The translations under genes were made by a program, and so were the position numbers. Shown here one piece after another: positions 30,870-34,553 of a stretch of DNA of 64,000 nucleotides. Source of the stretch: an uncultured Myxococcales bacterium (lineage in GTDB: Bacteria; Myxococcota_A; UBA9042); the NCBI GenBank assembly GCA_903842345.1, contig CAIMLR010000047.1:62001-126000 (forward strand), read 5' to 3'. The notes under the pieces are model-generated. The model worked only from the letters and a program-made list of their open reading frames with translations, had not been told where the DNA came from and searched no databases. Position 1 is the first letter of the stretch. Each line of letters starts with the position of its first letter.

Positions 30870-31595
30870 ATGCGTTCCCGAATCCTTCGCTTGGTGTTTG
30901 CGCCCTCCTTGTTGCTCGCCGTCACCGCCGCGCCGATGGCCGCGTTGGCCGTTGGCGCTTCGATCTCGCCGTACGCGGCGATCCACCAGCGGGCGCAGCA
31001 GGCGTTCCGCGCGCTCCAGACCCGCACGCCGCAGGCTGAGGCCGAGTGGCAGTCCAACCAGCCGGGCATTCACATGCTCCTCGGCCTCGATGAGCCGCTC
31101 ATCGGTGCGACGCCGGCCTTGCGCGGGGACGGCTTTCTCCGCGCCAATGAGGCGCTCATCGGCGTGCCGGCCGCGCAATTGCGCGCGATCGAGCCAAGCG
31201 TGAGCCGTCAGCGGACCGTCCTGCGCTACCAACAGATGGTGCGCGTGGGCGACAAGGAACTGCGTGTGCTCGACGGCGAGGTGACGCTGACGTTTGACAA
31301 CGCCAACGGCCATCTTCTGCGCGTCGTGAGCGCCGCGATGCCGGTCCTGCACATCGTCCCGGGCGCGTTGACGCGCGAGGAAGCGGTGGTCAAGGCCCAA
31401 GCGGCGAGCGCGGGTTCGACCTTTGGCCGTGGCAATGCCCAGTCAGCGGAAGAGGCAGTGATCGCGCGTGCCCAGGGCGCCCGCCATGTGTGGATCGTGC
31501 ACGTGCCCGGTGCGTCGCTCAAGGACCTGCGGACGCTCGCCGTGGACGCCCAGACGGGCGCCGTGACCCGGATGCCCAACCGCGTGATGGACTAG
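30870..31595 (+). CDS. Secreted FTP/PepSY-type propeptide protein (fungalysin/thermolysin propeptide without protease)
   Basis: A 241-residue exported protein (signal peptide, no lipobox). Residues 85-150 match the fungalysin/thermolysin propeptide (FTP) pattern, with L-R-Y-Q-Q-M-V-R-V-G-D-K-E-L-R-V-L-D-G-E and a closing G-H-L-L-R-V-V strand; residues 160-235 resemble the PepSY part that follows FTP in M4/M36 precursors. In normal precursors this region folds and inhibits the protease in cis. Here the gene ends after the propeptide and the protease is a separate gene 56 bases downstream. It probably acts in trans as folding helper or inhibitor. GAGG precedes the ATG at 30870; an upstream ATG at 30732 is less likely. 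Confidence 0.72.
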   Translation: MRSRILRLVFAPSLLLAVTAAPMAALAVGASISPYAAIHQRAQQAFRALQTRTPQAEAEWQSNQPGIHMLLGLDEPLIGATPALRGDGFLRANEALIGVPAAQLRAIEPSVSRQRTVLRYQQMVRVGDKELRVLDGEVTLTFDNANGHLLRVVSAAMPVLHIVPGALTREEAVVKAQAASAGSTFGRGNAQSAEEAVIARAQGARHVWIVHVPGASLKDLRTLAVDAQTGAVTRMPNRVMD

Positions 31596-31651
31596 TCGCC
31601 ACCGCATTCGCGCCTTCCGAATCTTTCAGGCCCCTGTACCCCGAGGACTGC

Positions 31652-33373
31652 ATGTTTTCTCTCCTTCGAATCCGCTCCCGCGCCGCTCTCACGTTCGTCG
31701 GCGGCGTCGCCTGCTTCAGCCTCGGCGCATGCGGCGCGACGCCAGCCAGCGACGGCAATGGCGCGGCAAATGGCGTTGTTGGCGGCGAGGATGCCGCGTT
31801 GACCGGCGATGCCGCCGATGACGCCGCGGGCGACACCGGTCCGGTGAACAAGCTCGATCAGGCGAAGATCTACGTCAGCGATCCCAAGACGGATGCGCTC
31901 AAGACCACGCTTGTGACGCTCACGCACCCGACGGACCCGGACGGCCACTTGATCGGCGACTTTGCCTCCGTGTCGAACTGCCTGCAGCAGGACGGCGGCG
32001 CGCCGCTGAAATTCAACGGCTTTGAAGTGGGCGCGCTGTGCCTCGAGACGCCGACCGCGACGCGGGATGCCGACCAGAGCTACCTGAGCATCGTGCCGCC
32101 CGGCGACGACAGTGATCCGGAGGACAAGTTCGCCGAGCTGATGATGTACTACCACGTCAATCAGATTCACGACTTCTATCAGGATGGCTTTGACCTCGCG
32201 CTCAAGCACAACCCCATCGAGGCGCTCGTCAACGTCACGCTCAACAGCACCATCAACATGGGCGGCGGCACGGGCTGGCAGGGTTTCCCCAACGCGGCGT
32301 TCATGCCGCCGGAAGCGTTCACGGCCTACGGTTTGCCCAAGAAAGCCAATGGCGCCATTGTGTTTGGCCAGTATCAGTCAACTGATTTCTCCTACGACGC
32401 GTCGGTCATCTACCACGAATACACCCACGCGATGGTCGGCACGACGCGGCTCTCCGGCGTGCTCGTCGACGCCTTTGGCCTGGACAACCTGCCCGGCGCG
32501 ATGAATGAAGGCTTCGCCGATTACTTCTCCTGCTCGCGCCGCGACAGCCCGATCATCGGGCCGTATGCGCTGACGTTCCAGGGCGATTTCTACGTGCGCG
32601 ACCTCAGCTCCGGCCGCAAGTTCCCGGACGATTTGACGAGCGAGGCGCACGCCGACGGCAAGATCATCGGCTCGACGCTTTGGGAGATCCGCGGCGCGCT
32701 CGGCCAGCAGCAGGCGGACCAGATCATCCTGAACGCGCTGCAGAGCTTCAACGCGTCGACCAACCTCTACGGCGCCGGCAAGCTGATCCTGTCCGAAGCC
32801 AAGAAGGTGGACGCGGCGACCGGCACGACCGTCAACACCATCCTCAAGGCGCACGGCATCCTGAGCAGCGAGCGCGCCAAGGCGTGGGCGAAATTCTCCG
32901 TTCAGACGTCCGCTGAGCAGGTGCCGATCGCGATTGCCGGCACGGATCAGGTGCCGGCGGGTTCCGGCCTGAACGACGGCGTGCCGGGCTATTTCCAGTT
33001 TGTCGTCAAGGATATCCCCGCTGGCACGCAGGGCGTGACGCTCGCGTGGCGCGCGCAGGCGGGCCAGGGCGGCGGACTGACCGGCGGCGGTGGCGGCGCG
33101 CCTGACGTGCAGTTGGCCGTCAAGAAAGACGCGCTCGTGATGATTGGCACCAACCAGACCGAGGCCGACGCGATCGTGACCGGCAAGGCCAATGCTGCGT
33201 TCGGCAAGAGCTTTCAATCCGTCACGTTGACCGGGGCGTGCCTGCCGGCCAGCGGCGGCAAGCTGTACATCATGCTCCTGAACAAGGGCACGAGCGGCGA
33301 CGTCACGGATACCGACATCCAATTTGTCAGCGACGCTTCCAAGTCGCTCAACGTGGTGACCTGTGCAAAATAA
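31652..33373 (+). CDS. Fungalysin-like (M36/M4) zinc metalloprotease lipoprotein lacking its propeptide
   Basis: A 573-residue lipoprotein (lipobox L-G-A-C, Cys27) with a short Asp/Ala/Gly linker (30-64). The catalytic domain has H-E-Y-T-H (His255, Glu256, His259) and the third ligand in N-E-G-F-A-D (Glu286), the gluzincin pattern of thermolysin and fungalysin, plus an upstream Y-Y-H-V-N-Q-I-H-D-F-Y block typical of M36. There is no FTP or PepSY region; these lie in the preceding gene. A C-terminal beta domain (about 440-570) resembles pre-peptidase or binding domains. GAGGA precedes the ATG. It should be a cell-surface endopeptidase. The stop overlaps the next gene's GTG start by 11 bases. 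Confidence 0.87.
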   Translation: MFSLLRIRSRAALTFVGGVACFSLGACGATPASDGNGAANGVVGGEDAALTGDAADDAAGDTGPVNKLDQAKIYVSDPKTDALKTTLVTLTHPTDPDGHLIGDFASVSNCLQQDGGAPLKFNGFEVGALCLETPTATRDADQSYLSIVPPGDDSDPEDKFAELMMYYHVNQIHDFYQDGFDLALKHNPIEALVNVTLNSTINMGGGTGWQGFPNAAFMPPEAFTAYGLPKKANGAIVFGQYQSTDFSYDASVIYHEYTHAMVGTTRLSGVLVDAFGLDNLPGAMNEGFADYFSCSRRDSPIIGPYALTFQGDFYVRDLSSGRKFPDDLTSEAHADGKIIGSTLWEIRGALGQQQADQIILNALQSFNASTNLYGAGKLILSEAKKVDAATGTTVNTILKAHGILSSERAKAWAKFSVQTSAEQVPIAIAGTDQVPAGSGLNDGVPGYFQFVVKDIPAGTQGVTLAWRAQAGQGGGLTGGGGGAPDVQLAVKKDALVMIGTNQTEADAIVTGKANAAFGKSFQSVTLTGACLPASGGKLYIMLLNKGTSGDVTDTDIQFVSDASKSLNVVTCAK

Positions 33374-34553
33374 GAACAACCAGCGGTTTCTTGCCGCCTT
33401 GTGCTGCGCCGCCTTCGCGGCGGCTTGCGGCGGCACGACGACTGCCACCGTCGGCGCTGCCGTGGACGACGCTGCTGGCGCCGGTGATGCCGAACTGACC
33501 GCGGATGCTGATGCGTTGGCGGTGGGCACGGACGCGACGGCTACCGAGGATGCCGATGCGGCAGCCCCCGGAACCGATGCCGTCGCCGATGCCGGAACGG
33601 ATGCGGCTGCGGGAACCGACGCGCTTGCCGATGTCGCGCCGGTTGACGCAACGGCGCCGGACACCGCGGGCGGGCCGATCGCTGACCCCAACGTGGACGG
33701 ACCGTACAAGTTTGCAGAATTGGATGACAAACCCAAGTTGGCCACGGGCGACACGGTCGCGATCCACTGCGCCTATCCGACCGGCGGACCGTCCGCTGGC
33801 CCCTATCCGGTCATCGTCGTCGCGCACGGCTTCCAACTGACGCCGGACAAGTACTACGGCTACGTGCGGCGCTTGGCGTCGTTTGGCTATGTCGCGATGA
33901 CCGTCGACTTTCCGACCAGCTTCTTTGGCAATGACAATCCGCAGGAAGCCAAGGATCTCGCGGCTGCGCTCGACTGGGCAGCCAACAAGGGCGGCGTCCT
34001 CGCCGGCAAAGTCGACGACAAGAACGCCGGCGTCTGCGGGCACTCGCTCGGCGGCAAGGTCGCCTTCCTCGCCACGACGATTGAGCCGCGCTTCAAGGCC
34101 GCCATCGGCCTGGATCCCGTCGACGGCGGCGGTCCAACCGGTTGCAATCCGCCGCAGTGTGTCGACGTGACGGACGCGATCGGCAAGCTCGCCATCCCGT
34201 CCGGCTTTGTTGGCGAGACGACCGATTCCTCAGGCGGCATGCAGCCCTGCGCGCCCAAGATGAACAACTTTGAGACGTTCTACACCGCTGTGCCGGGCCC
34301 GTCGTTCAAGGTCACCGTCAACGGCGCCAATCACATGAGCTTCCTCGACGACACCAACGGCTGCCTCGCGTGTGGCTTCTGCAACCCGGCTACGCTCTCG
34401 CAGGCCAAAGTGACCGACCTTTCGCGTTCGTACGTCGTGGCGTTCTTTGAGCGCAACCTGCGCGGCATCCAAGCGTACGACGACTACCTGACCGGTGCGA
34501 CGGCCCAGGCGCGCTACGTGACCACCGGCATGGCGACAATCGAGAGCAAGTAG
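33363..34553 (+). CDS. Alpha/beta-hydrolase lipoprotein with Asp/Ala stalk (dienelactone hydrolase/chlorophyllase-like)
   Basis: A 396-residue lipoprotein (A-A-A-C, Cys22) with a very long Asp/Ala/Thr stalk (25-103). The hydrolase domain has V-V-A-H-G-F (oxyanion region), nucleophile elbow G-H-S-L-G-G (Ser228) and a late N-H-M-S-F segment that supplies the catalytic His. This pattern resembles PET-hydrolase/chlorophyllase-like esterases. Extra cysteines near 250-256 and 338-345 suggest disulfides, fitting an extracellular enzyme. The start is a GTG at 33363 inside the end of the protease gene, so the two are probably coupled. Substrate unknown. Confidence 0.82.
   Translation: MQNKNNQRFLAALCCAAFAAACGGTTTATVGAAVDDAAGAGDAELTADADALAVGTDATATEDADAAAPGTDAVADAGTDAAAGTDALADVAPVDATAPDTAGGPIADPNVDGPYKFAELDDKPKLATGDTVAIHCAYPTGGPSAGPYPVIVVAHGFQLTPDKYYGYVRRLASFGYVAMTVDFPTSFFGNDNPQEAKDLAAALDWAANKGGVLAGKVDDKNAGVCGHSLGGKVAFLATTIEPRFKAAIGLDPVDGGGPTGCNPPQCVDVTDAIGKLAIPSGFVGETTDSSGGMQPCAPKMNNFETFYTAVPGPSFKVTVNGANHMSFLDDTNGCLACGFCNPATLSQAKVTDLSRSYVVAFFERNLRGIQAYDDYLTGATAQARYVTTGMATIESK

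What the first reader, a model, noticed from the sequence alone, without database searches (positions are those of the whole stretch)
30870..33373. Fungalysin split into a separate propeptide protein and a propeptide-less protease
M36/M4 proteases are normally made as one precursor with FTP and PepSY regions before the catalytic domain. Here an exported FTP/PepSY-like protein (30870-31595) ends with its own stop, and 56 bases later a lipoprotein protease with H-E-Y-T-H and N-E-G-F-A-D begins with its own signal peptide and no propeptide. The propeptide would have to act in trans as chaperone or inhibitor. A frameshift is unlikely because the second gene has its own signal peptide, lipobox and acidic linker.
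Basis: partly seen in the sequence, partly recalled or inferred. Interest (0 to 1): 0.62.

Follow-up and report, generated by a model that had tools for sequence, protein, structure and literature searches.

The report
Two-gene zymogen: separately encoded protease propeptide
In a large group of myxobacteria-like bacteria, a thermolysin/fungalysin-type protein-cutting enzyme and the folding-and-safety domain that is normally part of the same chain are made as two separate exported proteins from neighbouring genes, apparently because the enzyme is anchored to the membrane by a lipid at the very end where that domain would otherwise sit.

Summary
P1 (30870-31595, Sec signal peptide) has no Pfam hit alone. 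Its family profile matches the thermolysin propeptide (E 1.7e-7) and the vibriolysin MCP-02 propeptide, and Pfam FTP and PepSY hit 7 and 6 of 18 members. Its AlphaFold2 model (pLDDT 87) finds YpeB, MCP-02 and fungalysin propeptides as the only significant PDB matches. P4 (31652-33373) is a complete M36/M4-like protease lipoprotein.
The split is not a local mutation. In the window's class, all 25 P4 loci with enough upstream sequence carry P1 next door as a separate gene, often overlapping by ATGA. It also occurs in three families outside the class. On a catalytic-domain tree the 35 split proteases form one group (92/91); the other side holds single-chain homologues that simply lack the P4 lipoprotein signal and acidic linker.
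Added here: all 34 split proteases with a complete N-terminus are lipoproteins, whereas 16 of 18 Myxococcota single-chain relatives carry a MYXO-CTERM-like C-terminal anchor. Splitting would free the N-terminus for lipidation. A read-through single-chain model (pTM 0.85) places P1 confidently against P4. Chaperone/inhibitor action in trans is inferred, not shown.

The parts
30870..31595 (+). P1: separately encoded FTP-PepSY prodomain, Sec signal peptide, 241 aa, soluble periplasmic/exported
   Evidence: family profile hits thermolysin and MCP-02 propeptides; AF2 pLDDT 87; Foldseek top three = YpeB C-terminal domain, MCP-02 propeptide, fungalysin propeptide
31596..31651 (+). 56-base gap between the P1 stop and the P4 start; in many relatives this is an ATGA or TAATG overlap (translational coupling)
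31652..31732 (+). P4 lipoprotein signal peptide, lipobox LGAC with Cys27 (codon 31730-31732)
   Evidence: (C27 invariant in 21 of 21)
31733..31852 (+). P4 acidic, low-complexity tether linker; absent from all single-chain homologues aligned
31853..33370 (+). P4 mature part: thermolysin-fold catalytic domain (H255ExxH259, E286, H333 conserved) and a C-terminal beta-sandwich
33363..34553 (+). Downstream gene overlapping the end of P4: chlorophyllase/PETase-like alpha/beta-hydrolase lipoprotein; same layout in the genus only, not part of the conserved core

Best explanation
This is an ancient two-gene zymogen. P1 is the FTP-PepSY prodomain of a thermolysin-clan (M36/M4-like) metalloprotease, exported on its own. 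P4 is the protease, exported as an N-terminally lipidated lipoprotein. I propose that the two meet in the periplasm, that P1 templates folding of P4 and blocks its active site non-covalently, and that P1 is then displaced or degraded (by P4 or other proteases) at the outer membrane or cell surface, leaving an active membrane-tethered protease. The split is coupled to a change of anchor: single-chain relatives keep the propeptide at the N-terminus and are mostly held by a C-terminal MYXO-CTERM-type tail, whereas split proteases carry the lipid at the N-terminus, where a cleavable propeptide would take the anchor away with it. Shown here: homology of P1 to propeptides, completeness of the P4 active site, conservation and grouping of the split, and the anchor association. 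Inferred: physical complex, chaperone/inhibitor function, mode of activation, surface location.
For: P1 profile: 5a3y thermolysin propeptide E 1.7e-7 and 3nqy MCP-02 propeptide 4e-5; Pfam FTP in 7/18 and PepSY in 6/18 members. Fold: pLDDT 87.3; 5boi 5.6e-7, 3nqz_A 2.4e-6, 4k90_B 9.5e-5, nothing else below 1e-3. P4: M36 model above cut-off, hit in 20/21 relatives; invariant H255, E256, H259, E286, H333; aureolysin/thermolysin fold. Collinearity: in the fused Ignavibacteria M36 of L039 the P1 profile matches residues 121-283 and the P4 profile starts at 285. Co-occurrence: 24 of 25 P4 loci of the class with at least 500 bases upstream have P1 on the same strand by profile, and the 25th (L094) by a broadened profile, E 1.3e-7. 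Tree: split versus fused needs one change, support 92/91, 93% of bootstraps, shuffles average 16. Single-chain homologues have zero residues in the stretch holding the P4 signal peptide and linker. Anchor: 34/34 split proteases with a full N-terminus have a lipobox cysteine (30 by pattern, 4 by eye); 16/18 Myxococcota fused ones on the tree have a Cys-plus-hydrophobic C-terminal tail, TIGR03901 over cut-off in 4 of 10 scanned. Complex proxy: read-through of L022 (one TGA between the genes) gives pTM 0.85 with about 105 low-confidence residues, too high unless P1 is confidently placed on P4.
Against: No experiment. The structure proxy used a relative's read-through chain, and its alignment held naturally fused homologues, so AlphaFold2 may simply be recalling the known zymogen arrangement; coordinates and PAE were not available, so active-site coverage was not measured. 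The anchor association is perfect in counts on the split side but rests on a single evolutionary change. Three distant fused relatives (L104, L109, L114) have an N-terminal lipobox, and L114 shows no C-terminal tail. P1 evolves faster than P4, as propeptides usually do, but this also fits a looser role.
Confidence: 0.8

Rival explanations
1. P1 keeps the propeptide fold but works only as a dedicated inhibitor/immunity partner that protects the cell from P4, like the co-operonic inhibitor emfourin of protealysin; P4 folds unaided.
For: Precedent for a thermolysin-clan protease with a separately encoded partner: emfourin/protealysin (PMC9505478) and RhpC/RhpP (PMC6490944). RhpP lacks the usual long propeptide.
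Against: P1 is a homologue of propeptides that both fold and inhibit; emfourin/RhpC is not a propeptide homologue. P1 precedes the protease gene with frequent ATGA coupling, which fits a folding partner.
Confidence: 0.16
2. P1 is an FTP/PepSY-fold exported protein with some other role (as YpeB has in spore germination) and is only co-transcribed with P4.
For: YpeB is the top fold match.
Against: Obligatory adjacency with P4 in every intact locus, and single-chain homologues with P1 and P4 fused in the same order.
Confidence: 0.03
3. The split is a frameshift, assembly error or local mutation of a normal single-chain protease.
For: Such broken genes do occur in metagenome-assembled genomes (e.g. 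L122; L096).
Against: The second gene has its own signal peptide and lipobox; the split is conserved across at least 11 family-level groups; purifying selection on both genes.
Confidence: 0.01

Closest known systems
Pre-pro-M36 fungalysins and pre-pro-M4 thermolysin-like proteases (FTP-PepSY propeptide in cis; solved complexes 3nqz and 4k90)
   Same: Homologous FTP-PepSY prodomain, homologous HExxH...E catalytic domain, same order
   Different: Here the prodomain is a separate protein with its own stop and signal peptide, so there is no covalent zymogen and no autoprocessing of a pro-mature junction
Myxosortase-dependent M36 metallopeptidases (NCBIfam NF038112) and Myxococcus xanthus MepA, described as a MYXO-CTERM protein and an outer-membrane-vesicle protease (PMC11980579, PMC4158809)
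   Same: Same phylum, same protease type, membrane-associated secreted protease
   Different: C-terminally anchored single-chain relatives versus N-terminal lipoprotein with a trans propeptide (single-chain layout tested here on homologues, not on MepA itself)
Protealysin-emfourin and RhpP-RhpC operons
   Same: Thermolysin-clan protease with an adjacent gene for a binding partner (inhibitor/chaperone)
   Different: The partner is not a propeptide homologue and the proteases are not described as lipoproteins
Laboratory trans-complementation of thermolysin or Pseudomonas elastase propeptides (own knowledge, not looked up)
   Same: A prodomain of this family can act as a separate chain
   Different: Artificially split; here the split is natural and old

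Membership tests
FTP-PepSY protease propeptides | Sequence similarity to FTP and PepSY models | tested here: met
   Not met for P0001 alone; met at family level: FTP 7/18, PepSY 6/18, 5a3y 1.7e-7
FTP-PepSY protease propeptides | Propeptide fold | tested here: met
   AF2 pLDDT 87 and Foldseek to 3nqz_A, 4k90_B, 5boi
FTP-PepSY protease propeptides | Covalent N-terminal part of the protease precursor | tested here: not met
   Own stop, different frame, own signal peptide, conserved in relatives
FTP-PepSY protease propeptides | Assists folding and inhibits the protease | not testable with these tools
   Only a structural proxy: pTM 0.85 of the read-through chain
M36 fungalysin peptidases | Pfam PF02128 above the curated cut-off | tested here: met
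   31 bits against 23.3; hit in 20/21 relatives
M36 fungalysin peptidases | HExxH, downstream Glu ligand, catalytic His | tested here: met
   H255, E256, H259, E286, H333 invariant in 21 sequences. Assignment between M36 and M4 is not sharp: by fold and profile aureolysin (M4) is closest
Myxosortase-dependent M36 peptidases (NF038112) | C-terminal MYXO-CTERM tail | tested here: not met
   No C-terminal hydrophobic/basic tail in P4 or any split relative
Emfourin/RhpC inhibitors | Sequence membership of the partner protein | tested here: not met
   No Pfam or NCBIfam hit of P1 to any inhibitor family
Bacterial lipoproteins | Signal peptide with lipobox cysteine | tested here: met
   LGAC, C27 invariant in 21/21; lipidation itself not testable here

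The most novel reading that the evidence does not exclude
P1 is not a one-use prodomain but a reusable, soluble regulatory subunit that can fold, silence and re-silence membrane-tethered P4, giving a reversible, dose-controlled protease instead of the irreversible covalent zymogen used elsewhere in this clan.
Probability: 0.25. Interest if true: 0.78.

Novelty: new variant of a known kind. Interest (0 to 1): 0.62.

Why it matters
Propeptides of thermolysin-clan proteases are known as covalent, single-use intramolecular chaperones. A natural lineage that has kept them as separate genes across many families of a phylum shows that covalent linkage is dispensable in evolution. It suggests a simple reason (an N-terminal lipid anchor excludes an N-terminal cleavable propeptide) and supplies ready-made two-component systems for testing prodomain folding and inhibition in trans. 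It also means that annotation misses P1 (no Pfam hit for most members) and may call P4 propeptide-less.

Tried and rejected
Frameshift/assembly artefact: rejected by conservation and the second signal peptide. Loss of the myxosortase system as the cause of the anchor change: rejected, MYXO-CTERM matches are still present in the window's genome (7) and in all genomes of its class listed in that search. The downstream hydrolase as part of the unit: rejected, it is conserved only within the genus. P0001 alone against Pfam, NCBIfam and PDB: no useful hit, which is why family profiles were needed. Candidate further splits in families f32 and f33 (L119-L122): fused or frame-broken M4 genes, contig ends, or FTP-bearing frames without a partner identified; not shown to be split pairs of this type. 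A survey of the phylum of L039 could not be run (the tool needs a genome handle). Paper searches for a described natural split of an FTP/PepSY propeptide found none in the open-access library; most subscription papers were not searchable.

Full report
What is there. P1 runs from 30870 to 31595 and is a 241-residue protein with a Sec signal peptide. P4 runs from 31652 to 33373, starts 56 bases after the P1 stop in another frame, and is a 573-residue lipoprotein (lipobox LGAC, Cys27), followed by an Asp/Ala-rich linker, a metalloprotease domain with HEYTH and NEGFAD, and a C-terminal beta-sandwich. The window lies in a 5.85 Mb, 50-contig genome whose named relatives are mostly Myxococcota genomes assembled from metagenomes.

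Is P1 a propeptide? Alone it hits nothing useful. An alignment of 18 relatives (A1) settles it: the profile hits the thermolysin propeptide over positions 46-227 (E 1.7e-7) and the MCP-02 propeptide (4e-5), and single members hit Pfam FTP (7/18, best 6.6e-7) and PepSY (6/18). AlphaFold2 gave pLDDT 87.3, and Foldseek found only three significant PDB matches: YpeB C-terminal domain, MCP-02 propeptide and Aspergillus fungalysin propeptide.

Is P4 a complete protease? Pfam M36 scores above its cut-off and hits 20 of 21 relatives, with the thermolysin C-terminal domain model hitting 11 of them. His255, Glu256, His259, Glu286 and His333 are invariant. The profile and the fold match aureolysin and thermolysin best, so it sits between M36 and M4. 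No propeptide lies before the catalytic domain.

Is the split real and old? In the first class search P1 homologues lay directly upstream of a P4 as a separate gene (L017/L056 is the same layout at a contig edge). With the P4 profile, 25 P4 loci in the class have at least 500 bases upstream; 24 have P1 by profile (one of them, L096, is a relic without the catalytic core), and the remaining one (L094) by a broadened profile at E 1.3e-7; five other loci are at contig ends. Gaps are short, with many ATGA or TAATG overlaps. Split pairs also occur in three families outside the class, f30, f43 and f59. Both genes are under purifying selection.

Single-chain homologues exist in the same phylum (L099, L102, L103, L105, L108, L111, L117 and others) and in an Ignavibacteria genome (L039), with P1-like and P4-like parts in the same order and directly adjoining. 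In an alignment with a read-through of L022, single-chain proteins have no residues at all in the 80-position stretch that holds the P4 signal peptide and acidic linker. A tree of 54 catalytic domains (35 split, 19 fused) needs one change between the states, support 92/91, found in 93% of bootstrap trees. The root is not fixed, so the direction (split from fused) is inferred from the wide occurrence of the single-chain form.

Why split? All 34 split proteases with a complete N-terminus have a lipobox cysteine (30 by pattern, 4 read by eye: L022, L027, L037, L062) and none has a C-terminal sorting tail; 16 of 18 Myxococcota single-chain relatives on the tree have a Cys-then-hydrophobic C-terminal tail and the two others a hydrophobic-basic tail. 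NCBIfam's MYXO-CTERM model is above its cut-off in 4 of 10 scanned. MYXO-CTERM tails are cleaved and sorted to the surface by myxosortase (PMC11980579). The window's genome still has MYXO-CTERM matches, so the change is not forced by loss of that system. My inference: a lipid on the N-terminus is incompatible with a cleavable N-terminal propeptide, and splitting resolves the conflict. This rests on one evolutionary event. Distant fused relatives L104, L109 and L114 do have an N-terminal lipobox, and L114 has no obvious C-terminal tail, so the rule is not absolute.

Do P1 and P4 bind? The tool folds single chains only. In L022 the two genes are in frame with one TGA between them, so the read-through (TGA read as W) was folded with 45 rows. 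This is a modelling device; nothing suggests that the organism reads the stop through. Mean pLDDT is 83.7 and pTM 0.85, with residues 236-314 disordered. The mature part of P4 makes up about 62% of the residues, so a pTM of 0.85 requires P1 to be placed confidently relative to it. Caveats: fused homologues were in the alignment, AlphaFold2 knows the zymogen structures, and no coordinates or PAE were returned, so active-site coverage was not measured.

Mechanism. Both proteins cross the inner membrane by Sec. P1 helps P4 fold and keeps it silent non-covalently; P4 is lipidated and moves to the outer membrane; P1 is lost or degraded and the tethered protease becomes active. Propeptides of this clan stay bound after cleavage and prevent premature activation (discussion of PMC6490944). 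Folding, inhibition and location are inferred here.

What is known. Operons pairing an M4 protease with a separate inhibitor/chaperone are known (emfourin/protealysin; RhpC/RhpP), but those partners are not propeptides. No paper describing a natural FTP-PepSY/M36 split was found in the open-access library; that search is incomplete. Verdict: a real, conserved, new variant of a known kind.

Noticed in passing
L096 (G043:C119:19583-20505): A relic of the pair: P1 fragments in two frames run directly into the C-terminal domain of P4 with the whole catalytic core missing; a deletion or a broken assembly in one genome of the same family.
   Followed up: partly
window 33363-34553 (+): Chlorophyllase/PETase-like alpha/beta-hydrolase lipoprotein (GTG start) overlaps the last 11 bases of the protease gene; conserved at this place only within the genus.
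   Followed up: partly
L122:1867-3755 (+): An ordinary FTP-PepSY-M4 protease gene broken in the middle of the M4 catalytic domain by a frame change in one genome; not the same kind of split.
   Followed up: partly
window 32900-33370 (+): The C-terminal ~150 residues of P4 form a predicted beta-sandwich with only weak fold matches to carbohydrate-binding modules; role unknown.
   Followed up: no
L104, L109, L114: Distant single-chain M4/M36-like proteases with an N-terminal lipobox in front of the propeptide; two of them also have a C-terminal MYXO-CTERM-like tail.
   Followed up: partly
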